Virus record (IMG/VR): IMGVR_UViG_3300031999_000240
Location: 1-20,479 of that record
DNA from: a virus
Strand: one strand, 5' to 3'
DNA: 20,479 nucleotides
In this document: positions 5,267 to 20,479 of the stretch, one piece after another
Layout of the letters: every line of letters starts with the position of its first letter
Position numbering within the stretch: the first letter of the stretch is position 1
Translations under genes and position numbers: made by a program
Notes under the pieces: generated by a model
Databases searched by the model: none
What the model was told of the DNA's origin: nothing
The model's input: the letters and a program-made list of their open reading frames with translations, nothing else

Positions 5267-5286
5267 CGGCCGCCAGGAGGAATGCG

Positions 5287-6435
5287 ATGCCGTATCCCAA
5301 CGAACATTCAGCCAGACTCAAGGATCCGGACGATTTCGCCGCAGACAGCTTCCGGCGCAAGGCAGACGGAACAATCTACGGGAAGATCAAAGTGCCGGCG
5401 ACGATCGATGTGATTTGGGGAAAGTTGAAAGGCAAAGACGCTCCGGACGATCAGCCGATTCCCCAGGCGCTGCGCTTTCCAACGAAGGATTGGACGGCGA
5501 GCGAGGCCAAGGCATGGCTCGAGGAGAACAAGATCAAGTACGTCAGCTTCGAACCCGCCGAGGAGAAGTCGCGCACTAGCCCGCCTCCCGGCATCAAGAT
5601 CCCGCAAGGCTTCCAGCATCGAAGTTTCCCACTACGCGAACTCAGGGTTGAGCCCGCAGAGGACAACCAGAGGAAGATCGTGGGTTATGCCGCGGTTTTC
5701 AATGTCCTCAGTGAACCCCTGTGGGGTTTCCGGGAAAAGATCCGCAAGGGAGCGTTCACCAAGACCATCGGCGAGGCGAATATTGTTGCACTCTTCAACC
5801 ACAATGAGGACATGATTCTTGGTCGCAACAAAGCGGGCACCTTGAAACTCGCGGAAGATGACATCGGGTTGGCCATCGAAATCCTGCCGCCCGAGACGCA
5901 ATCGGCAAAGGATCTCATGATCAGCATGGAAAGAGGCGATGTTTCGCAAATGTCGTTCTCCTTCAGAGTCGTACGCGAGGAATGGGATCATCTGCCCGCT
6001 GAGGAAATCCGAACTCTGGTGGAAGTGGAATTGCGGGATGTCAGCCTAGTTGTGTTCCCGGCCTACCCGCAGACGATCGCCACGGTGGGGGTGCGCTCGG
6101 TGTTCGGGATCGAGATGCCCAAGCTGGCTGATGCCCTCGGCCGACTCGAGGCGGGCACCGCGGTATTGAGTGATCGTGACCTGGTGGGCGACGTGGTCGG
6201 CAAAATCAGCCGTTGCCTTCCGGGCGACCACGCCTGCAGACGTCGCGAGCTCGATGCGGCCATGCTGCCGCCGGACCTGGCGCGCCGGCGTGCCGAGCTC
6301 GATGCGGCTATGCGGGCGCCAGGCCTGCGGGGCATGCATAAACAGCTCGAGGAATTGGAGCGGGAAGTGCTGGCGGCGAGTCCAGATGACGAGCCAGTCA
6401 TGTCTCGACCGCGAAGAGGACACGATAGACACTAA
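5287..6435 (+). CDS. HK97-family prohead protease with extra N-terminal domain
   Basis: Start ATG 5287 is chosen because AGGAGG (5275-5280) is 6 nt upstream and MPYPNEHSARL is the usual start of this N-terminal domain; an in-frame ATG at 5263 lacks such a site. Residues 1 to about 95 form a small domain (PYPNEHSARLKDPDDF, TKDWTASEAKAWLEEN) often found in phage proteins. Residues about 110-270 are the serine protease that trims the capsid delta domain and matures the procapsid: RKIVGYAAVFN, His172 in LFNHNEDMILG, Ser223 in QMSFSF and an acidic residue (Glu248) in VELRDVSLVVFPAYP, a plausible H-S-E triad. The C-terminal about 110 residues are Arg/Leu-rich and helical. The middle is duplicated at 20152-20479. 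Confidence 0.9.
   Translation: MPYPNEHSARLKDPDDFAADSFRRKADGTIYGKIKVPATIDVIWGKLKGKDAPDDQPIPQALRFPTKDWTASEAKAWLEENKIKYVSFEPAEEKSRTSPPPGIKIPQGFQHRSFPLRELRVEPAEDNQRKIVGYAAVFNVLSEPLWGFREKIRKGAFTKTIGEANIVALFNHNEDMILGRNKAGTLKLAEDDIGLAIEILPPETQSAKDLMISMERGDVSQMSFSFRVVREEWDHLPAEEIRTLVEVELRDVSLVVFPAYPQTIATVGVRSVFGIEMPKLADALGRLEAGTAVLSDRDLVGDVVGKISRCLPGDHACRRRELDAAMLPPDLARRRAELDAAMRAPGLRGMHKQLEELEREVLAASPDDEPVMSRPRRGHDRH
5590..5917 (+). repeat. Direct repeat copy 1 (within prohead protease)
   Basis: This segment aligns without gaps to 20152-20479 at an offset of 14,562. I count about two dozen mismatches over the first 200 positions, in clusters between identical blocks. The final 127 positions (5791-5917) are identical to 20353-20479, with a mismatch immediately before (A at 5790, C at 20352). 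Confidence 0.95.
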
Positions 6436-6463
6436 GCCCGAATTGGCGGGCGGGGAGATGGGC

Positions 6464-6676
6464 ATGGACACGTTACCCGTGTTGCTGAAACTTGTGAGCG
6501 AGGGCGAAAAGTCGCTCATCGTGGATCTCACCTCGATAGCGATCGTGGTGAAGCATGGGGAAGGCGACCTTGAGGTCTGGATGAAATCGGGAACCATGTT
6601 CAAACTCACTGGCAAAAACGCCGCTCTCCTCTGGGCGGCGATCGAATCGGTGGCGATTCCAAAATTGCCGGGCTGA
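6464..6676 (+). CDS. Small hypothetical protein (70 aa)
   Basis: The product starts MDTLPVLLKLVSEGEKSLIV. GGGGAG at 6452-6457 lies 6 nt before ATG 6464; an in-frame ATG at 6458 directly abuts that site and is less likely. The sequence reads as two or three strands (SLIVDLTSIAIVVKH, EVWMKSGTMFKL) followed by a helix (NAALLWAAIESVAI). No family is recognised. It lies between the protease and tape-measure genes and stops 15 nt before the latter. Small genes just before a tape measure are often tail-assembly chaperones, but nothing in the sequence shows this. Confidence 0.68.
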   Translation: MDTLPVLLKLVSEGEKSLIVDLTSIAIVVKHGEGDLEVWMKSGTMFKLTGKNAALLWAAIESVAIPKLPG

Positions 6677-6691
6677 AGGAGGAAATGAACC

Positions 6692-8479
6692 ATGCCCGCT
6701 CCCGCTGAGACCCTGCGCGTCATCCTCACAGGCAAGGACGAGCTCAGCCCGACCATGCGCCAGGTGCGCGATGGGCTGAAAAAGCTGGGCGTCGACATCA
6801 CCAGCGTCGTCGCCCCTGCGGCCGCCGTTGCGGGGGCGATGGCCGGCGTGGCCGCGGCGGGCGCCAAGCTATTCGGGGATTGGCAGGAATACACCCTGAC
6901 GATCGGTGACTTCGCCGCCAAGCTGGGCACAACCACTGAAGAGGCCAGCGCCCTCACCGAGATGGCCGGCGATCTTGGCGTTCCCCTGACGTCGCTGGAA
7001 ACCGCGTTCAAGAAGATGTCGAAAGAGGGCATCGATCCCTCGATCGAGGGCCTGGTTGCGGTTCGAGAGAGGCTGAATGCCGCCAAGGATCCCGCCGAGA
7101 AACTGGCCCTGGCGACTTCGCTCCTGGGCAGGGCAGGCGCCGATCTCATCCCGATGTTCGACCAGCTGACCAACGACGAGCTGCGCAACTACATCGACAC
7201 GATGGGGGAAGGTCAGGTCGTGTCGCAGCGGGAGGTTGAACTAGCCCGTAAGAACCGCGCGGAGCTCGATGAGCTGGGCGATGCGTGGAAGAATTTCGGA
7301 CTGGTCGCCGGCGGGAGCATCGCGGAATTAATCTTGCCGCCGCTCGAGCGCCTAACCGGGGTTCTTTCGGGCGAGATGACCGTCTTTGATGCCTGGGCCG
7401 ATTGGTTTACTACCTCCAGCGTGGCGGCGCTGGCGGGTTGGCAGGAAGCAATCGAGACACATGCTGTCGTGCCGCTGCAGAACGCACGCGGCGCCATCCT
7501 GGGGCTGAATGATGAGGAAGTCGTGAAAGTTTTCCCGGACATGGCCGAACGGATCCGGGAAGGGCTTGTCGATCCGATGGACGCGGCTACCGGCAGCATG
7601 CAAGATTGGGGCCGGACCGCCATCATGAGTGCCGGGCTGGCACAGCTGTGGGGCGAGGCCATTGCGTTTGATGGGATCTCGGCCGAAGAAACGAAGGGCA
7701 TGATGGGACTTCTGACCGGAGACATGCGGGCCGAGATGTTGCCCACGCTGGCGGAAGCAATTTCGAACTTCAACACCGCGACTGGCGCGGTAGATGACGT
7801 CGGCCGGGCGCTTTCCCTTCTGCCCCCGCTCACCGAGCTCGAGGTGGTCACCTACTTCCGTGAGGTTCATGGAGGTGGAGGATCCTCGACGATCACGACG
7901 TCTTGGGGATCGGAGCACGAACGCCGGCAGGAAGGCGGCCCGCTCCCTGCGGCCGCCTGGACGCTGGTCGGCGAGCGGGGCTACGAACTCATCGATCCGA
8001 CAGGCTACGTCCATCCGCACGAAGAGTCGACGCGCCTGCTCGCCTCGCTGGCCCCCCAGGGCATCCAGGCCGGCGCCGCGGGCGTCATGATCGACGGCCT
8101 GGTGGGAGTGGGGGGAGCCTACGAGCGATCCGGGGCCGGGGTTGTCGGAGGCTACAGCCAGAGCACGGCCTATTACGGCGCAAACCCTCCGCCCGTCAGC
8201 GCTGGCGGGATCTCCGAAGGCGGCGCAGCCGGCGGATTATTCGATTCTGTGATTGAAGAGGTTCAACAGGCCGCCGCGGCCGAGAGCGCTGCGCTGGTCG
8301 CCTCGATCCCTGCTGCTGCAAGCGCCGCTGCCTCGGAACAGGGGCGCACGCAGGTTATCGAGACACGGCGTATCGGTGAAGATACGAACGCCAGGCTGGA
8401 CAAGATCCTGCGGGCGATTGAGAAGCAGACACGCACGCTGCCGACCATCGTGCGGGACGCCGTCGAGAGGGTGTTGTGA
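6692..8479 (+). CDS. Tail tape-measure-like protein
   Basis: 595 residues, ATG 6692 preceded by GAAGGAGG. The N-terminal part (DELSPTMRQVRDGLKKLGVD) leads to an Ala/Gly-rich hydrophobic stretch at about 36-60. Then come motifs common in tape-measure proteins, which set tail length and sit in the tail lumen: LGTTTEEASALTEMAGDLGV, ETAFKKMSKEG, and AKDPAEKLALATSLLGRAGA. A second hydrophobic region lies near 240-250. The C-terminal third has GGPLPAAAWTLVGERGYELI, the 'VGE-G-E-l' signature seen near the end of many such proteins. It is short for the family, implying a short tail or a reduced protein. It lies upstream of the capsid gene, the reverse of the usual order. Confidence 0.82.
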   Translation: MPAPAETLRVILTGKDELSPTMRQVRDGLKKLGVDITSVVAPAAAVAGAMAGVAAAGAKLFGDWQEYTLTIGDFAAKLGTTTEEASALTEMAGDLGVPLTSLETAFKKMSKEGIDPSIEGLVAVRERLNAAKDPAEKLALATSLLGRAGADLIPMFDQLTNDELRNYIDTMGEGQVVSQREVELARKNRAELDELGDAWKNFGLVAGGSIAELILPPLERLTGVLSGEMTVFDAWADWFTTSSVAALAGWQEAIETHAVVPLQNARGAILGLNDEEVVKVFPDMAERIREGLVDPMDAATGSMQDWGRTAIMSAGLAQLWGEAIAFDGISAEETKGMMGLLTGDMRAEMLPTLAEAISNFNTATGAVDDVGRALSLLPPLTELEVVTYFREVHGGGGSSTITTSWGSEHERRQEGGPLPAAAWTLVGERGYELIDPTGYVHPHEESTRLLASLAPQGIQAGAAGVMIDGLVGVGGAYERSGAGVVGGYSQSTAYYGANPPPVSAGGISEGGAAGGLFDSVIEEVQQAAAAESAALVASIPAAASAAASEQGRTQVIETRRIGEDTNARLDKILRAIEKQTRTLPTIVRDAVERVL

Positions 8480-8643
8480 TCGCGCCGGGTGAGATGACGC
8501 GCGAGCAGCTCGAGGCCGAGGTCGCCGCGTTGCGAGCGACGATCGAGGAGATCGGCAAAGAATGGCGGGAGCTGCATGCTTTGCTGAGCGTGGTGCTTCC
8601 GATTACGCCGTCGCGACGTGTGAATGCAGCACGGTTGAACTGA
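8476..8643 (+). CDS. Small coiled-coil protein (55 aa)
   Basis: GTG 8476 overlaps the tape-measure stop by 4 nt (GTGA), the classic arrangement for translational coupling. The product (MIAPGEMTREQLEAEVAALR onward) is a Leu/Ile heptad helix through WRELHALLSVV. It stops at TGA 8641. The same frame then stays open to TGA 8773, encoding LRRQLELADDPVPEVPR near the end. No family is recognised; coupling and position just before the capsid suggest a small virion-assembly factor. Confidence 0.55.
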   Translation: MIAPGEMTREQLEAEVAALRATIEEIGKEWRELHALLSVVLPITPSRRVNAARLN

Positions 8644-8823
8644 TACCGGCTCGCCGCCGCGCCGGGCCCAGCGGCCCACCCGGCGGACGCCCTGCAGGAC
8701 CCGCCCAGTGCGCGGGATCACCTGCGCCGGCAACTCGAGCTGGCCGACGATCCTGTCCCAGAGGTCCCTCGGTGAAGATCGGGGGACCTCGGAGGACGTA
8801 AACTTGCGAAAGGATGGTGAGTC
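8644..8823 (+). other. Gap before capsid gene with open reading-through frame
   Basis: No independent start codon with a good ribosome site is seen here. The frame of the preceding 55-residue ORF remains open from 8644 to 8775 with normal-looking codons. The capsid ribosome site (AAGGATG, about 8811-8817) lies at the end. Confidence 0.4.
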
Positions 8824-9840
8824 ATGAACAAAGGTCCATTTCACAGCCTGGGCGAGCAGCTGCAGGCCGTCGCCGAGTTCTACAAGTCAAGGGGGCGAGA
8901 TGCGGATCAGCGTCTGTTTGAGCCACGGGCCCTGGGGCTGAACGAGGGCATCCCGTCGGAAGGTGGGTTCCTGGTTCAGACCGACTTCTCGACGACACTG
9001 GTCGGCCTCATCCACGAGACGGGCATCCTGCCCGGGCGTTGCACGCCGTTCAAGATCTCCAGCCCATCTAACGGCGTGCACGTCAATGCCATCGACGAAA
9101 CGAGCCGGGTAGATGGCAGCCGCTGGGGCGGCGTTATCAGCTATTGGCTTCACGAGGCCGGGACAAAGCTCGCCACGAAGCCGAAGTTCCGCCAGATGGA
9201 TCTGAAGCTCGAAAAGCTGATCGGCGTGTGCTACGCCACCGACGAGCTCGTGGCAGATGCGGCTGCGCTCGAGAGCGTGGTCATGCAGGTGGTTCCAAAA
9301 GAGTTCGGCTTCCAGGTCGATCGGGCGATTTTCGAGGGGACGGGCGCCGGGCAGCCGCTGGGGATCCTGGGCAGTGGGGCGCTGATCACCGTCGCGGCAG
9401 AAGGTGGCCAGGCGGCCGATACCGTCGTGGCCGAGAACGCCGCCAAGATGTGGGCTCGCATGTGGCCGCCATGCCGGCGCAGCGCGGTCTGGCTCATCCA
9501 TGCGGACATCGAGCCCCAGCTCGATGCGTTCTCGGCGCCGGCGGTCTACATGCTCGAGGCCCCTTATTGGCGGCTTCTGAAGGGACGACCGGTGATCATC
9601 TTCGAACACTCCGCCGCGCTCGGGGATGTGGGCGACATCGTGCTGGCGGACTTCAGCCAGTACTTGCTGGCGGACAAGGATCCCGAGACGGCCACCTCGA
9701 TTCACGTGGCGTTCCTGACCGACGAGACGACCTTCCGGTTCGTGTACCGGGTGGACGGCGAGCCGATCTGGAATGCGCCGCTCACGCCGGCGAAGGGTAG
9801 CAACACGCTCTCGCCGTTCGTGACCCTGGCTGCCCGGTAA
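8824..9840 (+). CDS. HK97-fold major capsid protein
   Basis: 338 residues. HK97-type hallmarks in order: GLNEGIPSEGGFLVQTDF, the long E-loop/P-domain strands (WLHEAGTKLATKPKFRQMDL), LEKLIGVCYATDELVADAAA, VDRAIFEGTGAGQPLGIL, and a C-terminal PVIIFEHSAALGDVGDIVLADF. This protein assembles the icosahedral shell. The region before the fold is only about 30-40 residues, much shorter than the roughly 100-residue delta domain of HK97 itself, even though a prohead protease is encoded; any cleaved scaffold must be short or supplied by another protein. ATG 8824 follows AAGGATG. It is the last intact virion gene in this block. Confidence 0.93.
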   Translation: MNKGPFHSLGEQLQAVAEFYKSRGRDADQRLFEPRALGLNEGIPSEGGFLVQTDFSTTLVGLIHETGILPGRCTPFKISSPSNGVHVNAIDETSRVDGSRWGGVISYWLHEAGTKLATKPKFRQMDLKLEKLIGVCYATDELVADAAALESVVMQVVPKEFGFQVDRAIFEGTGAGQPLGILGSGALITVAAEGGQAADTVVAENAAKMWARMWPPCRRSAVWLIHADIEPQLDAFSAPAVYMLEAPYWRLLKGRPVIIFEHSAALGDVGDIVLADFSQYLLADKDPETATSIHVAFLTDETTFRFVYRVDGEPIWNAPLTPAKGSNTLSPFVTLAAR

Positions 9841-9869
9841 ACCGGGTACCTGAGTTGCCATCCGTGATG

Positions 9870-9896
9870 CCCGGCTCTCGCGTCCTGGGAGCCGGG
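9870..9896 (+). terminator. Hairpin after capsid gene
   Basis: CCCGGCTC (9870-9877) can pair with GAGCCGGG (9889-9896) across an 11-nt loop, 30 nt after the capsid stop. There is no T run, so it may be a weak or factor-dependent terminator, or an mRNA-stabilising 3' structure. Confidence 0.5.
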
Positions 9897-9988
9897 ACCG
9901 GTCCTCGAGGCAGAAGCTATCGACAGCAGCGGGCAAGTGCCGTGGAAGAGGGGGAATCCATCCGCCGGATGGATTTGAGGGACGACCG

Positions 9989-10117
9989 ACACAAAGCGAA
10001 CGAAGGCAAGAGCTCGGAGTGGGACAAGCGACGGTAGAACGGGCTGATGCAATCGTGGATCACGCGCCAGAGGCGGCCAGAGCTGTTGCTAACCGAAACG
10101 GGGAGGCGCAAGAAGGA
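9989..10117 (+). pseudogene. Fragment of ParB-like helix-turn-helix coding sequence, copy A
   Basis: In this frame the DNA reads TQSERRQELGVGQATVERAD followed by AIVDHAPEAARAVANRNGE. This resembles the HTH segment of ParB/KorB-like DNA-binding proteins (the pattern 'GVG-ATVERA--I---AP' is typical). No credible start or upstream domain is present, and the frame downstream turns into Arg/Ser/Trp-rich sequence, so I read it as a relic. It shares a 17-nt exact block (10052-10068) with copy B at 10224-10240. Confidence 0.5.
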
Positions 10118-10151
10118 CAAAGTGAACAGAGCATATACGGATCCTGGATAT

Positions 10152-10271
10152 GCTCGGAAGACGAAGAAAGAGCGAGCGGACGAGACTGGTGTTGGAGAAA
10201 GCACTGTTGGTCTGGCCGACTTCATCGTGGATCACGCGCCGATTCGGCACATGCTCCAAATTGGAGCATGA
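10152..10271 (+). pseudogene. Fragment of ParB-like helix-turn-helix coding sequence, copy B
   Basis: In a different frame from copy A the DNA reads ARKTKKERADETGVGESTVG then LADFIVDHAP, the same motif. It terminates at TGA 10269 inside a palindrome. It could be the end of a short ORF starting at ATG 10047, but that ORF lacks a ribosome site and its first 35 residues look non-native. Two out-of-frame copies 172 nt apart suggest tandem duplication and decay. Confidence 0.45.
10251..10269. promoter_or_regulatory. 19-nt perfect palindrome, probable operator
   Basis: ATGCTCCAAATTGGAGCAT has 9-bp arms around a single central base. A related palindrome with the same CTCCAA/TTGGAG core lies at 10907-10921. 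This fits a dimeric repressor or partition-type binding site; which protein binds is unknown. Confidence 0.5.
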
Positions 10272-10455
10272 TGCGAAGACTGTGGGACCTGGCGGGAGTG
10301 GTATGTGGGCGGAGATGGATTGGAGGAGATGATCGAGGCCCGCCGGCGCTGGCAGGGCGACGCGGCGGGCGAGGGGAAACGGAAGTGCCATCGATAATTG
10401 TACTGTCTCGTGGTTCTCCCGCAAGAGCTTTCGAGTCTCACGACGGAGGCGATCG
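10272..10455. other. Gene-poor stretch in decayed region
   Basis: No frame here shows a recognisable protein or a start with a ribosome site. I see nothing beyond the GGAGG (about 10444-10448) serving the following ORF. Confidence 0.4.
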
Positions 10456-10952: not shown

Positions 10953-11450
10953 ATGACGAATGCGATAGCGCTTCCCGATCTCGGCTCTGACTTGGAGCGT
11001 GCGTTCGACACGCAGCTGCGGCGCCTGGGTCCGGATCTGCCGGCGCCGGAGGCCGGCTATCGCGTCATGGTCAAACGCCGCTGGAAGTTCGATCGAGCCT
11101 GGCCGCGGGAGAAGATCGCCGTCGAGCTCGAGGGCGGGCGCTACGGCCGCACAGTCCAATGCCACGAGTGCGGGGCGACAGTCCGGGCGACGCGCGCCGA
11201 TGGATCTGCCGGCGAACCGATCCGGATCCTGGGCTGGCACGCGCGGGACGATCGTTTCCAGGCTGACATCGAGAAGTACAACCATGCGCAGGCCTTGGGC
11301 TGGATCGTGTTGCGCTTCAGTCGCCAGGACGTCGAGAGCCGACCGATCAACATGATCGCTACGCTGCGGCTCATCTTTGCTCTGCGAACATCGGTACTCT
11401 CCGAAGAACTTCGGCGCCGGTATGAGGAGCAATGCGAAGCGCTTGTCTGA
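10953..11450 (+). CDS. PD-(D/E)XK/Vsr-like endonuclease with CxxC insertion
   Basis: 165 residues. The core reads WKFDRAW (Asp47), then KIAVELEGG (Glu58, Glu60), then GWHARDDRFQADIEKYN and ALGWIVLRFS. This is the signature of the small restriction-endonuclease-like nucleases common in phages (Vsr/DUF559-type: D...E-x-E-G-G...G-H...K-Y-N...G-W-x-x-L-R-F). Between the E-x-E strand and the histidine lies an insertion of about 25-30 residues with CHECG (Cys70, Cys73). A second cysteine pair is not in this protein, so any zinc site must be half-formed or completed by dimerisation. The likely role is DNA processing during replication, recombination or packaging. ATG 10953 lacks a strong ribosome site. 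Confidence 0.75.
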   Translation: MTNAIALPDLGSDLERAFDTQLRRLGPDLPAPEAGYRVMVKRRWKFDRAWPREKIAVELEGGRYGRTVQCHECGATVRATRADGSAGEPIRILGWHARDDRFQADIEKYNHAQALGWIVLRFSRQDVESRPINMIATLRLIFALRTSVLSEELRRRYEEQCEALV

Positions 11451-11476
11451 AGCGCCCGTCTCCTAAGGCATCCCGG

Positions 11477-11674
11477 ATGGTTTTCATCCGCCGCTTTGCT
11501 GCGGATCCGCCCGACGAGCTGGCGGAGCACGTGCGGATCGTCTTTGAGCCCTGGCTCGCCGCGCTGTCGCCGGCGGCCGGTGCTACAATCAAAGCGGATC
11601 CGAAGCCCACGACAGGTGATCAACATGAAGCAAGCGGGCGCGCTGATCCGCGTCTCGACCTCCCGCCAACTTGA
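11477..11674 (+). CDS. Possible small protein overlapping recombinase start
   Basis: ATG 11477, with TAAGG about 9 nt upstream, opens a 65-residue frame (MVFIRRFAADPPDELAEHVR, then IVFEPWLAALSP). The first 35 residues look like a plausible amphipathic helical peptide; the last 20, which overlap the recombinase, do not. No family is recognised. It may be a short leader peptide or no gene at all. Confidence 0.35.
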   Translation: MVFIRRFAADPPDELAEHVRIVFEPWLAALSPAAGATIKADPKPTTGDQHEASGRADPRLDLPPT

Positions 11675-13310
11675 GGGCACGAGCCCCGAGAAGCAGCTCG
11701 AGGGCGTCCGGGCCCTGGCCGTGTCGCAGGGCTTTGCGATCGCCGACGTCCACGCGTGGACGATGGCCGAGAGCGGCAACCTCCGGGAGCGGGCCGGTTT
11801 CCGTCTGGCGCTCGATGCCATCGGCGCCGGCGAGATCGGCCGCCTGTATGTCTTCAGCATCGATCGGCTCGGGCGCAACCTGCTCGAGCTCCTGCTCTTT
11901 TTGCGCGACCTCGAGGACCGCGATGTCGAGTGCTGGGAGGCGCAGGGCGGGCGACGCCTTCGCTGGGACGACTTCCTTGTCCAGATCGAGGGGGCCGTCG
12001 CCAGCAAGGAGCGCCAGGAGATCGTCCGGCGGAGTCAGGATGGCCTGCGTCGCGCCATCTCGGCCGGCAAGTTCTCCGGAGGCATCATCGCCTACGGCTA
12101 TCGGCTCAATCCCGTCAGCAAGCAACTCGAGATCGATCCGGAGGAGTCGGCTGTCGTGCGGCTGATCTTCGACGGGACGGTCGGCGAACGCCTCAGCACC
12201 GTCGAAATCGCCGATCGGCTAAACGGCCTCGGGATCCCGACGCGCTACGCCAAGGACGGCCGCCAGATCCGCCGGGGAAAGCGGGCTCCGGAGCACACTG
12301 CTGGGATCTGGCGAGCCGGCCGCGTCCGGAACATGCTGAAGAACCCGGCCTACACTGGCACGTGGGAGTGGGGCAAGCGTTCCAGCAAGCGGCCGCCCTC
12401 CGATCGCATTGTTGGAGCCTGCCCGGCCATCGTTTCCGTGGAAACGTTCGAGGCCGCCGCCCGTGTGTTGGCTGTGAATCGCTGGCGGCGCGAGCGGCCG
12501 GCAGACCGGCCTTACTTGCTGCGCGGGCTGATCCGCTGCGGCGACTGCGGCCTGACGTATGTCGGCTCGGCCTCGCATGTCGCCGGCGGGAAGGAAAAGC
12601 GGTACTACCGGTGCAACGGGGCGACGCAATGGCACAAGCTCGGGCGGGCGAAGTGTCCGAGCAAGAGCCTAGTCGCCGGCGAGCTCGAAGCGGTCGTCTG
12701 GGCCGACATTCAGGCCTTCGTGCAGCGTCCGGAGGTGGCGCTCGAGCAGCTGCGGGCGGTCCGGGCGCCGCTGGACGCGACGCTGGGGGAGCGCCTGGCC
12801 GAGATCGATCGCGAAATCCGCGAGCTGCATCGGCGCGAGCGCAACGTCATTCGCCTGGCGGCCGAGAGCACGCAGGCCGATCCCCGGGCCCTCGACGATG
12901 TCCTGGGCGAGATCCGGGGCTCGCTGGCGTCCCTGGAGGCCTACCAGAGCCAGTTGCGGGCCCGGCTGCAGGCGGGCGAAGCCCTGGAGCGGGAGCTCTT
13001 CGGGGTCGCCGAACGCCTGAGTCGGCTGCAGCAGGCTATCGACCAGGCCGACTTTTCCCAAAGGCGACGAGCGGTGGAAGAGTTGGTCAAGGGCATCGAG
13101 GTGGCGACTCGGGTCGAAGATGGGCGCAAAACGCCCGTGGTCACCATAACTTACCGCTTTGACGACCTGGGTGGCCCCCCGGTGCCCACCTCGGGGCTGT
13201 TCTCCGGGGAGCTGGACCGCACGAGTGAACTTGCGCACGTACTGACCGGAGCGATGGAGATCACCCGGGAATGGGGGCCCGGTTGGCGGGATCGGGCAAT
13301 TGGCCCTTGA
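11625..13310 (+). CDS. Large serine recombinase (phage integrase type)
   Basis: 561 residues. Start ATG 11625 follows AGGTGAT and matches the family's N-terminus. The catalytic resolvase domain (1 to about 145) has the nucleophile Ser11 in LIRVSTSRQ and FSIDRLGRNLLELL. The 'recombinase' DNA-binding domain (about 150-300) carries KFSGGIIAYGYRLN and EIADRLNGLGIPT. A zinc ribbon has Cys305/Cys308 (IRCGDCG) and Cys330/Cys344. A coiled coil (about 385-475) completes the standard order. Such enzymes integrate circular DNA at attB without host factors and excise with a directionality factor. An equally complete tyrosine recombinase lies 560 nt downstream, so one of the two may have been acquired on a mobile segment. 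The frame is intact. Confidence 0.93.
   Translation: MKQAGALIRVSTSRQLEGTSPEKQLEGVRALAVSQGFAIADVHAWTMAESGNLRERAGFRLALDAIGAGEIGRLYVFSIDRLGRNLLELLLFLRDLEDRDVECWEAQGGRRLRWDDFLVQIEGAVASKERQEIVRRSQDGLRRAISAGKFSGGIIAYGYRLNPVSKQLEIDPEESAVVRLIFDGTVGERLSTVEIADRLNGLGIPTRYAKDGRQIRRGKRAPEHTAGIWRAGRVRNMLKNPAYTGTWEWGKRSSKRPPSDRIVGACPAIVSVETFEAAARVLAVNRWRRERPADRPYLLRGLIRCGDCGLTYVGSASHVAGGKEKRYYRCNGATQWHKLGRAKCPSKSLVAGELEAVVWADIQAFVQRPEVALEQLRAVRAPLDATLGERLAEIDREIRELHRRERNVIRLAAESTQADPRALDDVLGEIRGSLASLEAYQSQLRARLQAGEALERELFGVAERLSRLQQAIDQADFSQRRRAVEELVKGIEVATRVEDGRKTPVVTITYRFDDLGGPPVPTSGLFSGELDRTSELAHVLTGAMEITREWGPGWRDRAIGP
12431..12446. promoter_or_regulatory. CGTTTCC-N2-GGAAACG palindrome, site 1 (in coding DNA)
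   Basis: CGTTTCCGTGGAAACG lies inside the serine recombinase gene, where it encodes VSVET of a family-conserved motif, so codon constraint may explain it. It is identical to the intergenic site at 19104-19119. Confidence 0.4.
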
Positions 13311-13505: not shown

Positions 13506-13874
13506 ATGTTCCACACATCTTTGCGGATTGTCCTTTCAACCGAAGCCGACGACTGCAATGCGTTTGACCGCCGCCGGGTTGTCCGGGCCCTGGCCGACGC
13601 CAGGCGGGTCCTGGAGGACCGCACCAACGGGGACAGCTTCCCGCCCCGGGGCGAGGCGGTCAACCTCCTTGTCGACTTGGCCAGGCGGCTGCGGCTGACC
13701 GCCTTCGAGATGATCGACGCCCTGGGTGCCCAGATCATGGACGACCGGGCCTGGGAGGCTACACTGCCCGTCAACGCGCCGCCCGCCGAATTCGCGACCT
13801 GGTGCGCCGAGCATGAGGGAAAGGACGTCGGCCCCCTCGATCTGGGAAGTGTCGACGTGCAGAGGCTGCGATGA
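13506..13874 (+). CDS. Hypothetical protein coupled to tyrosine recombinase
   Basis: 122 residues. GGGGAGG at about 13494-13500 supports ATG 13506, and the stop overlaps the recombinase start by 4 nt (ATGA), so the two are translationally coupled. It begins MFHTSLRIVLSTEADDCNAF and reads as mainly helical (RRVVRALADARRVLEDR, AVNLLVDLARRLRLTAFEMI) with an acidic C-terminus. No family or catalytic motif is recognised. Its place between a promoter/attenuator and an integrase suggests an accessory to, or regulator of, integration; this is inference. Confidence 0.68.
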   Translation: MFHTSLRIVLSTEADDCNAFDRRRVVRALADARRVLEDRTNGDSFPPRGEAVNLLVDLARRLRLTAFEMIDALGAQIMDDRAWEATLPVNAPPAEFATWCAEHEGKDVGPLDLGSVDVQRLR

Positions 13875-14764
13875 ACGACCTCGGCAACTGGCTCGCTCAG
13901 CGCCAGGATCTATCGGACTCAACGAGGATCCAGTATTCGTGGTACCTCCGTCGATTCCTGGACTGGCTGCAGAGCGAAGGCCTCACCGTTGATGACCTCG
14001 ACGCCGCGGGTTTCGTCCGCTGGCTCGACGCTCATGAGTGGAGCCGGGCCTCGCGCCGCCTGGCGGTGAACGCCATGCGCTCGTTCGTCCGCAGCCGGTT
14101 CGGGCCTGACCATCCCGCACTGAAGGTCCGTCTGCCTCGAGTGCTGCCGGCGCCGCAGCGCACGCTGACACAAGACGAGACGGCCGCCCTGCTGCGGGCG
14201 CTCGAGGTCGAGGATCCCGGGGACATCGCCAACGCGAAGCGAGTCCGGGATCTGACGCTCATGTCGCTGCTGATCGACACCGGCTTGCGATCAGGGGAGG
14301 TTTGCCGGCTGCGGCTACGCGACGTCGACCTGGAGAAACGGACCCTCACCGCGCAGGTGAAAGGCGGCCGATGGGCTCAAGGCTATTTTTCCGTGATCAC
14401 CCGGATCCGGCTCCGCTATTGGATTGCCCTCCGGAGGGATCTTGCCCGGCCTAGCGTCGAGGCGCTCTTCGTGGGCCTGGGCGGTTTGACCCCAGGGTGT
14501 GGCATGACGGTTTGCGGCCTGCGGTCCGTGTTTCGCGAACTGGCCCGCGAGCTCGGGCTCAATCCCTTCAGCCCCCACGCGTTGCGTAGAACATTTGCGA
14601 CGCTGCTGATTAGCAATGGCGCCTCCTCCAGAGTGACCCAGCTCGCCGGCCGCTGGTCCAACATCGGCATGGTTGAAACGTACACCAGGAGCCTGGCGAT
14701 CGAGACTGTGGATCCTTTCCTGCCGGCGGCGGTGCTTTGGACCAAGCAGCGGGAAACTGCGTAA
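13871..14764 (+). CDS. Tyrosine recombinase (XerC/D-like integrase)
   Basis: 297 residues with both standard domains. The N-terminal SAM-like core-binding domain (about 1-85) has SDSTRIQYSWYLRRFLDWLQ. The catalytic domain carries Arg140 (DTGLRSGEVCRLRLRDVDL), a lysine in the beta turn VKGGRW, His236-x-x-Arg239 (HALRRTFAT), Trp262 at the second His/Trp position (AGRWSN) and the nucleophile Tyr271 (VETYTR). The set R-K-H-R-W-Y is complete, so the enzyme should be active. It is Xer-sized, lacking the arm-binding domain of lambda-type integrases. It is coupled to the upstream unknown gene; an excisionase-like gene follows 14 nt later. Confidence 0.92.
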   Translation: MNDLGNWLAQRQDLSDSTRIQYSWYLRRFLDWLQSEGLTVDDLDAAGFVRWLDAHEWSRASRRLAVNAMRSFVRSRFGPDHPALKVRLPRVLPAPQRTLTQDETAALLRALEVEDPGDIANAKRVRDLTLMSLLIDTGLRSGEVCRLRLRDVDLEKRTLTAQVKGGRWAQGYFSVITRIRLRYWIALRRDLARPSVEALFVGLGGLTPGCGMTVCGLRSVFRELARELGLNPFSPHALRRTFATLLISNGASSRVTQLAGRWSNIGMVETYTRSLAIETVDPFLPAAVLWTKQRETA

Positions 14765-14778
14765 CCACGGAGGCACGC

Positions 14779-15165
14779 GTGAAGGAGAAGATCGGGAGCG
14801 ATCCGGCAGTTGATGTTGCCGTTGCGATCGCCCGGATCCGTGGGTGGCTCAGCGATTGCCGCCCCGGGGCGGTAAAACACGGGGACCGCATCGAAGAACT
14901 CTTGCGAGCAGCATCCGGCCAGGCCGACCACGTGGCCCGGCCGGATGCCGATTCGTTATCAGCGGAGGCAGGGATGAAAGAAAATCTGGACAAGCTCATC
15001 TCGCTCAAACAGGCCGCCGGCATCGCCGGCGTGTCGAGGATCTCGATCTGGCGGTGGATCCGGGGCGGCACACTGAAGCATGTCGAGGTCGGTGGCAAGC
15101 TCTTCGTGCGCCGCGCCGATCTCGACAGGGCCTTGCGGGCTCGTCGAGGTGGGCACCGAGCATGA
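14779..15165 (+). CDS. Excisionase-like HTH protein with N-terminal extension
   Basis: GTG 14779 is preceded by CGGAGG (14768-14773). The 128-residue product has an N-terminal helical part (IARIRGWLSDCRP, IEELLRAASGQADH) and a C-terminal MerR/Xis-type winged HTH: LISLKQAAGIAGVSRISIWR, WIRGGTLKHVEVGGKLFV, RRADLDRAL. A second in-frame start, ATG 14974, has its own GGAGG (14962-14966) and would give a free 63-residue HTH of normal excisionase size. Its place right after the integrase fits a directionality factor or repressor. Either start, or both, may be used. Confidence 0.78.
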   Translation: MKEKIGSDPAVDVAVAIARIRGWLSDCRPGAVKHGDRIEELLRAASGQADHVARPDADSLSAEAGMKENLDKLISLKQAAGIAGVSRISIWRWIRGGTLKHVEVGGKLFVRRADLDRALRARRGGHRA

Positions 15166-15404
15166 GCGCCGAGACGGCGATCGCCGTCATCCTGGCCCTG
15201 GTTGTCGGCTATGCGGTGGGGCAGTTGGCAGCGAAGAGGAAATCTCCATCGGGCACTGGCCTCCTGGTTCGCCTGGGGGCCGAGCCATCAGTGGATCCCG
15301 GGCTGCTCGAGGAGATGCGCGAGGCGCTGCTCGTGATCGAGGCCCGCCTGCAGCGGGCCCAGCGCGCGCTGGGCGAGATCCATCGCGGGGAGCGCGGTCG
15401 CTGA
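15162..15404 (+). CDS. Small single-pass membrane protein (80 aa)
   Basis: ATG 15162 overlaps the previous stop by 4 nt (ATGA). Residues about 5-24 (TAIAVILALVVGYAVGQLAA) form one transmembrane helix, followed by basic KRKS, which predicts the C-terminus in the cytoplasm. The rest is a coiled-coil helix (LLEEMREALLVIEARLQRAQ). No family is recognised. Small phage membrane proteins of this build can be superinfection-exclusion or lysis-related, but there is no direct evidence. Confidence 0.65.
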   Translation: MSAETAIAVILALVVGYAVGQLAAKRKSPSGTGLLVRLGAEPSVDPGLLEEMREALLVIEARLQRAQRALGEIHRGERGR

Positions 15405-15420: not shown

Positions 15421-15570
15421 GTTCGCCCCACGCGCGCGAGGGGGGGGTCTTCCGAACGTGTACCGAATCGGTATACGATGGTTCGCCCCACGCGCGCGAG
15501 GGGGGGGCTCATGCCCGGTTTCCGGCTATGTCGGGAAGACGAGTTCGCCCCACGCGTGAGGGGACAACCC
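15421..15570. CRISPR. Three-repeat CRISPR-like mini-array, type I-E-like repeats
   Basis: Repeats start at 15421, 15481 and 15543 with GTTCGCCCCACGCG, a spacing of 60 and 62 nt. Repeats 1 and 2 are identical over 27 nt; repeat 3 has a diverged 3' half (TGAGGGGACAACCC). Each is an imperfect palindrome (CCCC-ACGCG...-GGGG) like type I-E repeats of 28-29 nt with spacers of 32-33 nt. In one reading frame on the complement, repeats 1 and 2 read PPLARVGRT, a familiar by-product of translating such arrays. Gaps between repeats are 33 and 35 nt. No cas gene is in the window, and no AT-rich leader is evident. A non-CRISPR tandem repeat cannot be excluded with only three units. Confidence 0.65.
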
Positions 15571-15581
15571 AATTGTTGGGT
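15567..15581. promoter_or_regulatory. Short inverted repeat at array end
   Basis: ACCCAA and TTGGGT flank TTG, giving a 15-nt inverted repeat that overlaps the last bases of CRISPR-like repeat 3. It may be an operator or part of the array boundary. Confidence 0.3.
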
Positions 15582-15602
15582 CGCCGGCGGGTGGCGCTCG
15601 GC

Positions 15603-15630
15603 CGTTTCCCGGGAAACGCGATGATAGAAT
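15603..15630 (+). promoter_or_regulatory. Promoter with overlapping 16-bp perfect palindrome
   Basis: CGTTTCCCGGGAAACG (15603-15618) is a perfect palindrome with the arms of ParB parS sites (GTTTC...GAAAC) and the CCCGGG centre known from the Noc-binding site. An extended -10, TGATAGAAT (15622-15630), lies right after it, so the palindrome covers the spacer and -35 position. A bound protein would block or control transcription toward the gene at 15769. The -35 itself is poor. Confidence 0.6.
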
Positions 15631-15768
15631 ACCGATTGAAACAAGTCGCCGGCGAGGTAGAAGCCTCCCGGCGACGGCCAGCGCGGCGATGCGCGCGGCG
15701 ATCCCAGTGTAGCACAGATGGGCCGCTCGCAGAAGTCGCAGGCGGCCCGTTCGATTGCGAGGTGCTGC

Positions 15769-16296
15769 ATGGGCTTTATCTTTGTCGAGAAAGTTGCCTA
15801 CGATGTCCTGGCGGCTGCAGTGGATGAATGCCTGGAGACATTTATGCCCGGCGTCGTAGAGTATCAGGTCGAACGTCAGACGCCTGGCAGCGTGACCTAC
15901 CGGATGAATTGTCGACACGGGGATCTCGGCACGCTGGTGATACGAAAGTTGTCGGCGACGTGCTCTCAACTGGACTTCAGCGGTCCGCCGAAGGATAGGG
16001 TCGATAGGACTGCCGCGCGGCAGTGGTTATGGGACCCACTCATCCGGGGATTCTTCGCTCGGCTCCGTAAGGAGGAGATCTGGACGGACGAGAACCCGCC
16101 CACTGTGCCTCCCAAGCCGCCACGTGGTCGGCCCCGAAATCAAAACGATGCTTGGGCTGTGCAACAACTCAACGAGGGCAAGGATCCTGGCAAGACAAAG
16201 GCTTTGTGGAGCATCATGAACGAAAAAAGCGAAAGAAAGCTGTCGGACAAAACCCGTACCTGGGCACGGATTTTGAAGCGGCAGAAAATGCACTAA
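15769..16296 (+). CDS. Phage replication-region protein, probable DNA-binding
   Basis: Start ATG 15769 (MGFIFVEKVAYDVLAAAVDE) is preferred: GAGGTG lies 6 nt upstream and a conserved-looking hydrophobic start follows. An in-frame ATG at 15718 lacks a ribosome site. The 175-residue product has an N-terminal alpha/beta part (TYRMNCRHGDLGTLVIRK) and, after the proline-rich TVPPKPPRGRPRNQ, a basic C-terminus that reads as a helical DNA-binding tail (DAWAVQQLNEGKDPGKTKAL, KTRTWARILKRQK). I do not recognise a named family. It is first in the replication block behind an operator-controlled promoter, so an early regulator is plausible. Confidence 0.65.
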   Translation: MGFIFVEKVAYDVLAAAVDECLETFMPGVVEYQVERQTPGSVTYRMNCRHGDLGTLVIRKLSATCSQLDFSGPPKDRVDRTAARQWLWDPLIRGFFARLRKEEIWTDENPPTVPPKPPRGRPRNQNDAWAVQQLNEGKDPGKTKALWSIMNEKSERKLSDKTRTWARILKRQKMH

Positions 16297-17651: not shown

Positions 17652-18520
17652 GCGGGTCGCGCTTGATTGACGAATGGGGCCACTTTACGGCGATGCCGGA
17701 GATCGTCATCCAGCGCTGGGCAGAGCTGGGCACGGATGCCATCGCGATGTTTCTGTACCTTCGCTACAGGACGAATCGGGAGAGACGGCATCCGCTGGAG
17801 GGCTGCGCCTGGCCGGATCTTGACACCATCGGCCAAGAGACAGGGATGCACTATCGGCGCATTGGGCCGGCGCTCAAGATCCTTGAGAAGGCCGGCTTGC
17901 TGACCAGGGAAAAGAGGTTCGGCCGTTCCGTCGTTTACACCCTCCAGAGACCCCCAGATCTAGGGCTGAACAGTCCCTCCACCATTGGAGGGACTGAGGA
18001 AGTGCATAGTCCCTCCACCGTTGGAGGGACAGTCCCTCCACCGTTGGAGGGCACAGTCCCTCCACCGTTGGAGGGGGACCTATATAGAGTCTATCCAGAT
18101 AGAGTCTACCCAGATAGAGACACACCCTCGCGCGGCTCGGGTGTGCGAATCACCCACGACGCGATCCGACGGGCGGTAGCCGAGCATTTTGCAAAGTGCA
18201 CGGGTCTGGACTTGCCCGCTGTCGAGACAGAGGCCCAGCGCAAGAGTTCCGGCGCCGCCTGGTGGGCGCCAATCCGGGAGATCTGCGAGCTCGTCGACTG
18301 GCGCGAAACGGATGCCCAGGCCTTGGTTGACACGGCGATCGCCCGCCTGGGGAAGGGGCAATGCTCGATTGCCGAACCGCGCTCGATTCTCAAGACGGCT
18401 CGGGCAATCATTGGTGAGGTCAAGCGCGGTGCTTTCCAGCCCGAGGGGGAGCCTCGAGGTTACGCAGGCCTGCGCGCTTTCCTGCAGCAGTCTGAGGAGG
18501 TGGTCAATGTCGGACGCTGA
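17648..18520 (+). CDS. Lambda O-like replication initiator
   Basis: 290 residues; ATG 17648 follows GGGGAG. Residues about 20-100 are a winged HTH of the kind found in phage initiators: WPDLDTIGQETGMHYRRIGP, ALKILEKAGLLTREKRF, GRSVVYTLQRPP. Residues about 109-150 are low-complexity (SPSTVGGT, PPPLEG) because the DNA there is four inverted-repeat iterons. The C-terminal domain (about 165-280) has TGLDLPAVETEAQRKSSGAA and SILKTARAIIGEVK. An initiator with its own origin inside the gene, followed by a loader-like gene, is the arrangement of lambda O/ori/P. The function is inferred from this layout and the HTH, not from a close family match. Confidence 0.75.
   Translation: MSGSRLIDEWGHFTAMPEIVIQRWAELGTDAIAMFLYLRYRTNRERRHPLEGCAWPDLDTIGQETGMHYRRIGPALKILEKAGLLTREKRFGRSVVYTLQRPPDLGLNSPSTIGGTEEVHSPSTVGGTVPPPLEGTVPPPLEGDLYRVYPDRVYPDRDTPSRGSGVRITHDAIRRAVAEHFAKCTGLDLPAVETEAQRKSSGAAWWAPIREICELVDWRETDAQALVDTAIARLGKGQCSIAEPRSILKTARAIIGEVKRGAFQPEGEPRGYAGLRAFLQQSEEVVNVGR
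17974..18076. repeat. Four inverted-repeat iterons (probable replication origin)
   Basis: The unit TCCCTCCACCGTTGGAGGGA, itself an inverted repeat with 7-bp or longer arms, occurs at 17974-17993 (one base changed in the centre), 18010-18029, 18033-18052 and 18057-18076 (last base variable). Spacing is 36, 23 and 24 nt. They lie in the linker of the initiator-like gene, as in lambda ori. Confidence 0.8.
18080..18122. other. AT-richer tract next to iterons, candidate unwinding element
   Basis: Right after iteron 4 comes a stretch with three direct repeats of ATAGAGTCTA-like sequence (TATAGAGTCTATCCAGA, TAGAGTCTACCCAGA, TAGAGACAC). G+C is about 40%, far below the surrounding DNA. This fits the duplex-unwinding part of an origin. 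Confidence 0.6.
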
Positions 18521-20122: not shown

Positions 20123-20479
20123 TGAGAGACGGGCGATCAGACCGGCCGCTAGGCGTGAAGATCTCGGAGGGCTTCCAGTATCGAAGTTTCCCACTACGCG
20201 AACTCAGGGTTGAGCCCGCAGAGGGCGGCCAGAGGAGGATCCGTGGTTATGCCGCGGTTTTCAATGTCCTCAGTGAACCCTTGTGGGGTTTCCGGGAAAA
20301 GATCCGCAAAGGCGCCTTCGCGAAGACGATCCGGGAGGCGAACATTGTTGCCCTCTTCAACCACAATGAGGACATGATTCTTGGTCGCAACAAAGCGGGC
20401 ACCTTGAAACTCGCGGAAGATGACATCGGGTTGGCCATCGAAATCCTGCCGCCCGAGACGCAATCGGCAAAGGATCTCA
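20119..20479 (+). CDS. Second prohead protease, truncated by window end
   Basis: ATG 20119 (or the adjacent in-frame ATG 20122) follows AGGAGGA at 20110-20116. The product begins MMRDGRSDRPLGVKISEGFQ and joins the protease core at YRSFPLRELRVEPAEGG. It keeps the His in LFNHNEDMILG; the Ser and Glu positions lie beyond the end. It lacks the N-terminal MPYPNEH domain of the copy at 5287 and so resembles the ordinary form of the enzyme. The core is near-identical to copy 1 at DNA level, with a perfect 127-nt match at the end. Confidence 0.85.
   Translation, partial: MMRDGRSDRPLGVKISEGFQYRSFPLRELRVEPAEGGQRRIRGYAAVFNVLSEPLWGFREKIRKGAFAKTIREANIVALFNHNEDMILGRNKAGTLKLAEDDIGLAIEILPPETQSAKDL
20152..20479 (+). 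repeat. Direct repeat copy 2 (within second protease)
   Basis: Gap-free match to 5590-5917, offset 14,562. Identity is roughly 88% in the first 200 nt by hand count and complete over 20353-20479, ending exactly at the window edge. Confidence 0.95.

What the first reader, a model, noticed from the sequence alone, without database searches (positions are those of the whole stretch)
15421..15570. Orphan CRISPR-like mini-array inside a phage
Three repeat units spaced 60 and 62 nt, with a type I-E-like palindromic repeat and gaps of 33 and 35 nt, lie between an excisionase/membrane-protein gene pair and the replication module, with no cas genes nearby. Two repeats are identical over 27 nt, so the array is not old decay. 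Phage mini-arrays are known to use host Cas proteins against rival phages. Spacer 1 itself contains a perfect inverted repeat (TACCGA-A-TCGGTA), which is unusual for a spacer and might mean the unit is regulatory instead.
Basis: partly seen in the sequence, partly recalled or inferred. Interest (0 to 1): 0.75.

Follow-up and report, generated by a model that had tools for sequence, protein, structure and literature searches.

The report
Phage mini-CRISPR aimed at related phage
A temperate-looking phage contig carries a three-repeat, two-spacer CRISPR mini-array without cas genes, and one spacer is a perfect 33-34 nt copy of a partition-protein gene in a related phage, so it probably borrows the host's CRISPR machinery to shut out a rival.

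Summary
Three 27-28 nt palindromic repeats stand at 15421, 15481 and 15543. Spacers are 33 and 35 nt, with no cas genes found on the 20,479-base viral contig. The CRISPR reading gains a decisive-type result: spacer 1 plus one flanking base (15447-15480) matches 34/34 a related phage contig, IMGVR_UViG_3300031999_000127. The match starts and stops at the repeat borders. It lies inside an intact ParB-like gene, and that phage has no such repeat. The array phage's own ParB remnant matches only 23/33 there, so this contig is not self-targeted. Spacer 2 has no exact hit, but its best non-self match in the window falls on the same ParB site in the other orientation (p about 5e-5 to 5e-4). Spacer 1's inverted repeat is native to the target gene. 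A second viral contig (L027) carries an independent three-repeat array with a related repeat. Not established: host, host repeat, transcription, a known PAM (neither side reads AAG), and interference. The two contigs end in the same exact 88-nt overlap. This suggests one sample, but leaves linkage across the contig ends uncertain. Best filed as a new member of a known kind: phage-borne, type I-E-like mini-CRISPR arrays.

The parts
15421..15447 (-). CRISPR-like repeat R1 (27 nt, identical to R2); drawn on - because the I-E-like 3' end (GTGGGGCGAAC) reads on the minus strand
15448..15480 (.). Spacer 1, 33 nt (34 with G15447); exact match to a ParB-like gene of phage contig G001 (IMGVR_UViG_3300031999_000127, 11904-11937)
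15481..15507 (-). CRISPR-like repeat R2, identical to R1
15508..15542 (.). Spacer 2, 35 nt; no exact hit to its 24-nt core; best non-self match in the window is the ParB remnant at 10130 (23/35)
15543..15570 (-). Repeat R3, divergent copy with standard I-E geometry (CCCC-8 nt-GGGG) and 3' end CGAAC on the minus strand
15571..15717 (-). Intergenic stretch upstream of R3 on the minus strand; the only room for a leader/promoter (the other side has 16 nt). No consensus promoter found
   Evidence: inference
10019..10360 (+). Degenerate ParB-like gene remnant, homologous to the targeted gene of G001; protospacer 1 equivalent only 23/33, downstream flank 73/79
14737..15165 (+). HTH_17 / excisionase-like protein (phrog_66)
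13871..14764 (+). Tyrosine integrase (Phage_integrase)
15162..15404 (+). Small ORF (80 aa, N-terminal hydrophobic stretch), ends 16 nt before R1

Best explanation
It is a phage-borne mini-CRISPR array of type I-E-like geometry: three repeats, two spacers, no cas genes. Proposed mechanism: in a host with a compatible type I-E system, the array is transcribed, most likely on the minus strand from the 15571-15717 intergenic stretch. Host Cas6e cuts the transcript at the repeat hairpins, and host Cascade uses the crRNAs against related phages. Spacer 1 directs it to the linker region of a ParB-like gene in a probably co-occurring relative, excluding that rival from the cell. Shown: the array, the exact spacer-protospacer identity bounded by the repeats, absence of the array in the target phage, an intact target gene, and a diverged self-locus. 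Inferred: spacer capture by host Cas1-Cas2, transcription, orientation, processing, interference and the superinfection-exclusion role.
For: Window 15447-15480 matches G001 11904-11937 34/34, ending exactly where R2 begins and starting one base inside R1. The match lies within an intact 276-aa ParB-like ORF (phrog_4715 and tblastn to phage ParB genes). G001 lacks the repeat at up to 3 mismatches. The window's own copy of the site is mutated (23/33) while the downstream flank is 92% identical. Spacer 2 falls on the same site at p 5e-5 (shuffled) to 5e-4 (genomic 35-mers). An independent three-repeat array, spacing 61/61, with a related repeat lies next to an HTH/excisionase-like ORF in another viral contig, L027. 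The anatomy matches published virus-borne mini-arrays: 1-2 spacers, no cas genes, targets in close relatives, self-loci mutated (PMC6858448; PMC11656645).
Against: No host is known, and no genome with an identical array was found among 84,980 species or in two phyla with a paired repeat-end pattern. Neither flank of protospacer 1 carries the E. coli-type AAG PAM: the 5' side is TTC(G) in plus reading, CCG in minus reading. No promoter was scored. The repeat hairpin is no more stable than shuffles. R1/R2 deviate from normal I-E geometry by 2 extra bases and a G run, so they may be poor Cas6e substrates. The shared contig ends leave a small chance that G001 belongs to the same element.
Confidence: 0.6

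Rival explanations
1. A decaying or inert mini-array: genuine CRISPR in origin (spacers captured by host Cas1-Cas2 into the phage), but no longer processed or used because repeats R1/R2 are aberrant and the target lacks a recognised PAM.
For: R1/R2 carry 2 extra bases and an 8-G run; R3 differs; no promoter scored; no AAG PAM.
Against: R1 and R2 are identical over 27 nt, spacer 1 still matches 33/33, and the minus-strand 3' end of the repeat is kept in all three copies.
Confidence: 0.22
2. RNA-based anti-CRISPR (Racr-like decoy): the repeats mimic host repeats and jam Cas6/Cas7, the intervals being irrelevant.
For: Phages carry solitary repeat units that inhibit type I-F, I-E and V-A systems, two I-E examples tested (PMC10651486). 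The repeats here are imperfect.
Against: Racrs are solitary units; this is a regular array of three, and one interval is an exact phage-derived spacer of normal length.
Confidence: 0.06
3. Self-directed array: the window's right end and G001 are one element, so spacer 1 targets the same genome and is tolerated for lack of PAM or of Cas.
For: Window end and G001 end share an exact 88-nt dovetail, also present at window 5830-5917; no AAG PAM.
Against: Each contig has its own integrase (43% identical), capsid (83%) and tape-measure gene (67%). The shared segment is a three-way repeat, as expected of two strains in one assembly. The window carries its own diverged ParB remnant.
Confidence: 0.08
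4. Not CRISPR: tandem regulatory or integrase/excisionase binding sites, or another repeat element, next to int-xis.
For: Position beside int-xis; inverted repeat in spacer 1; GC-rich palindromes.
Against: Regulatory sites do not explain a border-to-border exact copy of a foreign phage gene. The inverted repeat is native to the ParB gene.
Confidence: 0.03

Closest known systems
Virus-borne mini-CRISPR arrays of Saccharolobus portogloboviruses SPV1/SPV2 (Medvedeva et al. 2019, PMC6858448)
   Same: 1-2 spacers, no cas genes, intergenic, exact match to a close relative, orthologous self-locus mutated
   Different: Archaeal viruses with host repeats and leader known; here a bacterial-type tailed phage, I-E-like repeat, host and leader unknown; two spacers appear to converge on one 35-bp site
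Provirus/virus-encoded CRISPR arrays in metagenomes (landfill study, PMC10076291; review PMC11656645)
   Same: Metagenomic phage arrays whose spacers hit other viral contigs; proposed superinfection exclusion
   Different: Those are catalogue-level in the passages read; here the target gene, borders and diverged self-copy are resolved
Type I-E-like CRISPR array, e.g. the Armatimonadetes MAG array in L009 (GGTTCACCCCCACATGCGTGGGGACCAC)
   Same: About 61-nt period, 28-nt repeat, similar half-sites
   Different: No cas locus here, only two spacers, repeats not identical to any held host array
Racr / solitary repeat units (PMC10651486)
   Same: Phage-carried imitation of host CRISPR repeats without cas genes
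   Different: Solitary repeat as inhibitor; here a regular array with a phage-derived spacer

Membership tests
Virus-borne mini-CRISPR array | Two or more direct repeats with 1-2 spacers of uniform length | tested here: met
   3 repeats, spacers 33 and 35 nt
Virus-borne mini-CRISPR array | Located in a viral genome, between viral genes, without cas genes | tested here: met
   int/xis and replication/terminase genes on either side; no cas hit among scanned ORFs
Virus-borne mini-CRISPR array | Spacer matches a related virus outside any array | tested here: met
   34/34 in ParB-like ORF of G001, which lacks the repeat
Virus-borne mini-CRISPR array | Orthologous site in the carrier is changed | tested here: met
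   23/33 in window remnant
Virus-borne mini-CRISPR array | Repeat identical to a CRISPR repeat of the host | tested here: inconclusive
   Host unknown; no identical array in held genomes
Virus-borne mini-CRISPR array | Leader/promoter and transcription | tested here: inconclusive
   147-nt intergenic stretch on one side but no consensus promoter; no RNA data
Type I-E CRISPR | 28-29 nt repeat, about 61-nt period, CCCC-8 nt-GGGG hairpin | tested here: inconclusive
   Period 60/62 met; R3 has the geometry, R1/R2 have 10 nt between arms; hairpin energy not better than shuffles
Type I-E CRISPR | AAG-type PAM 5' of the protospacer | tested here: not met
   TTC(G) or CCG depending on strand; PAM of the true host system is unknown
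Type I-E CRISPR | cas3-cse-cas operon in cis | tested here: not met
   None on the contig among scanned ORFs; would have to be supplied by the host
Racr / solitary repeat unit | Single repeat with no partner within 100 bp | tested here: not met
   Three repeats within 150 bp; definition in PMC10651486

The most novel reading that the evidence does not exclude
The array is specialised on one hypervariable site: both spacers are variants of the same ~35-nt ParB linker segment taken in opposite orientations, so a family of co-resident phages would be sorted into mutually exclusive types by what they carry at a single partition-gene site, possibly through a type I-E-like system with a non-AAG PAM.
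Probability: 0.2. Interest if true: 0.75.

Novelty: new member of a known kind. Interest (0 to 1): 0.6.

Why it matters
Mini-arrays in bacterial phages are mostly catalogue entries. Here the spacer, its exact target gene, the absence of the array in the target phage and the mutated self-copy are all visible in two contigs that probably come from one sample. That makes phage-against-phage CRISPR conflict directly testable in a bacterial system and points to partition (ParB-like) genes as a target.

Tried and rejected
Regulatory or integrase arm sites: rejected after the exact spacer match. Chance repeat: rejected (27 nt against at most 13 in randomisations). BLAST of the whole segment against phage and plasmid records: only weak partial matches at E about 0.01-1. 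Spacer searches in those collections: nothing significant for spacer 1 in phages or spacer 2 in phages and plasmids. Spacer 2 core in IMG/VR: none; full spacer in 24 longer viral contigs, mostly capsid relatives, at 3 mismatches: none. Relatives of the flanking ORFs 15718-16296 and 14737-15165 in IMG/VR: none. Host by capsid homology: only 33-44% hits in the phyla of the Armatimonadetes and Desulfovibrio MAGs, uninformative. Host by paired repeat end in those phyla: none. Three of four IMG/VR array-pattern hits (L028-L030) were not arrays.

Full report
What is there. The window is a whole viral record of 20,479 bases, 63% GC. At 15421-15570 there are three direct repeats. R1 (15421-15447) and R2 (15481-15507) are identical over 27 nt. 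R3 (15543-15570) keeps the first 14 nt, lacks 2 nt in the loop and ends ACAACCC instead of a G run. The intervals are 33 and 35 nt. The longest exact repeat at offsets 50-75 in 100 first-order Markov randomisations was 13 nt, against 27 here. The repeats stand 16 nt after a small ORF that follows integrase and excisionase-like genes, and 147 nt before an unknown ORF. Replication initiator and small terminase genes follow on that side. None of the ORFs scanned is a Cas or known defence-system protein; the only PADLOC match was of the HTH protein to mad1, which I take for shared HTH similarity.

The key result. One close relative was found in IMG/VR, IMGVR_UViG_3300031999_000127 (here G001, 32,414 bases). 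Its capsid is 83% and its tape-measure protein about 67% identical. Comparing the two contigs gave a 34/34 match of window 15447-15480 to G001 11904-11937. The match begins at the last base of R1 and ends at the base before R2, as a spacer should. In G001 the site lies inside an intact 276-aa ORF that resembles phage ParB-like proteins. No repeat flanks it, and no repeat exists in G001 at up to 3 mismatches.

Self and non-self. The window holds a broken remnant of the same ParB-like gene at about 10019-10360. Downstream of the protospacer the two genes agree at 73 of 79 bases. Within the protospacer they agree at only 23 of 33, with three mismatches in the first five bases of the minus-strand reading. 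The carrier contig is therefore not a perfect target of its own spacer. The same was reported for SPV1/SPV2, where orthologous self-loci carry mutations or deletions (PMC6858448).

Spacer 2. Its 24-nt core has no exact match in IMG/VR, and the full spacer has none at 3 mismatches in 24 longer contigs. Its best non-self match in the window is the ParB remnant at 10130 (23/35), ending in the same GGAAGACGA that overlaps protospacer 1. A match that good at this one site, in either genome and either orientation, arises in 5e-5 of shuffled spacers and 5e-4 of genomic 35-mers. The raw score is not unusual for a whole-genome scan; only the position is. I treat convergence on one site as likely but not proven.

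Orientation and type. Read on the minus strand the repeats end in the same bases, (G)TGGGGCGAAC, in R1 and R2 and GTGGGGCGAAC in R3. The plus-strand 3' ends differ. The I-E crRNA handle comes from the repeat's 3' end (established knowledge), and the only room for a leader is 15571-15717, so minus-strand transcription is the better guess. No promoter was scored. R3 has the I-E hairpin geometry; R1 and R2 have two extra bases. Hairpin energies do not exceed those of shuffles. The protospacer is not flanked by AAG: the 5' flank is TTC(G) in plus reading and CCG in minus reading. So 'type I-E-like' is as far as I go.

Other arrays. The R1/R2 repeat pattern is found in no other IMG/VR contig. A looser paired pattern found one more true array: L027 (IMGVR_UViG_3300037518_000672), three copies spaced 61 and 61, repeat GTTCGCCCCACAAGCGCGTGGGTCAGGGG, between a TnpB-like gene and an HTH/excisionase-like ORF, named from reading their sequences. 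In 84,980 genomes the paired pattern found two hits. One is a Desulfovibrio MAG with two repeats between ribosomal protein genes. The other is an Armatimonadetes MAG with a degenerate three-repeat array about 0.2 kb from a regular I-E-like array. Neither is shown to be the host, and two phyla searched with a paired repeat-end pattern gave nothing.

Assembly caveat. The last 88 bases of the window equal the first 88 of reverse-complemented G001 and also window 5830-5917. Two contigs that stop at the same exact overlap look like neighbours in one assembly graph, so carrier and target probably shared a sample (inference). It also means linkage across these ends is uncertain. The gene order of the left half (portal, protease, tape measure, capsid) is scrambled relative to G001. 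Separate integrases, capsids and tape-measure genes argue for two phages. The array itself, about 150 bases, is not affected.

Verdict. Observation confirmed and interpretation supported. The most likely function is interviral exclusion through the host's CRISPR effector, with transcription, processing, PAM and interference untested. That this is a CRISPR array by origin I hold at about 0.9; that it is functional, at about 0.6. An inert relic of such an array is the main rival. The kind is known (PMC6858448, PMC7099407, PMC11656645, PMC10076291); this is a well-resolved phage member.

Noticed in passing
window 20392-20479 and 5830-5917; G001 (L006) end: The same exact 88-nt segment ends both contigs and recurs inside the window: a shared repeat node of one assembly, or a real duplication of the prohead protease gene (5590-5917 against 20152-20479, 93%).
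   Followed up: partly
window 5263-9900: Structural genes are out of the usual order: protease, tape measure, then capsid, while G001 has protease, capsid, then tape measure. Chimeric assembly or a rearranged element.
   Followed up: partly
window 17968-18110: Tandem repeats of about 24 nt (GGACAGTCCCTCCACCGTTGGAGG type) inside the replication initiator gene, iteron-like possible origin.
   Followed up: no
window 11634-13310 and 13871-14764: Both a large serine recombinase and a tyrosine integrase lie on one contig within about 3.2 kb.
   Followed up: no
L008:2725-2815: Two I-E-like repeats 61 nt apart in a Desulfovibrio MAG, between ribosomal protein genes; possibly off-target spacer integration or a stray mini-array.
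   Followed up: no
L009:281-492 (L020 end): Degenerate three-repeat array close to a regular I-E-like array in an Armatimonadetes MAG.
   Followed up: no
L005 (G001) 2101-2832, 6881-7936, 7926-9953, 11441-12271: The target phage carries four ParB-like genes, which seems a high number.
   Followed up: no
L027:1334-1488: Second phage mini-array with 32-33 nt spacers; no match of its spacers among fetched loci, not searched in whole collections.
   Followed up: partly
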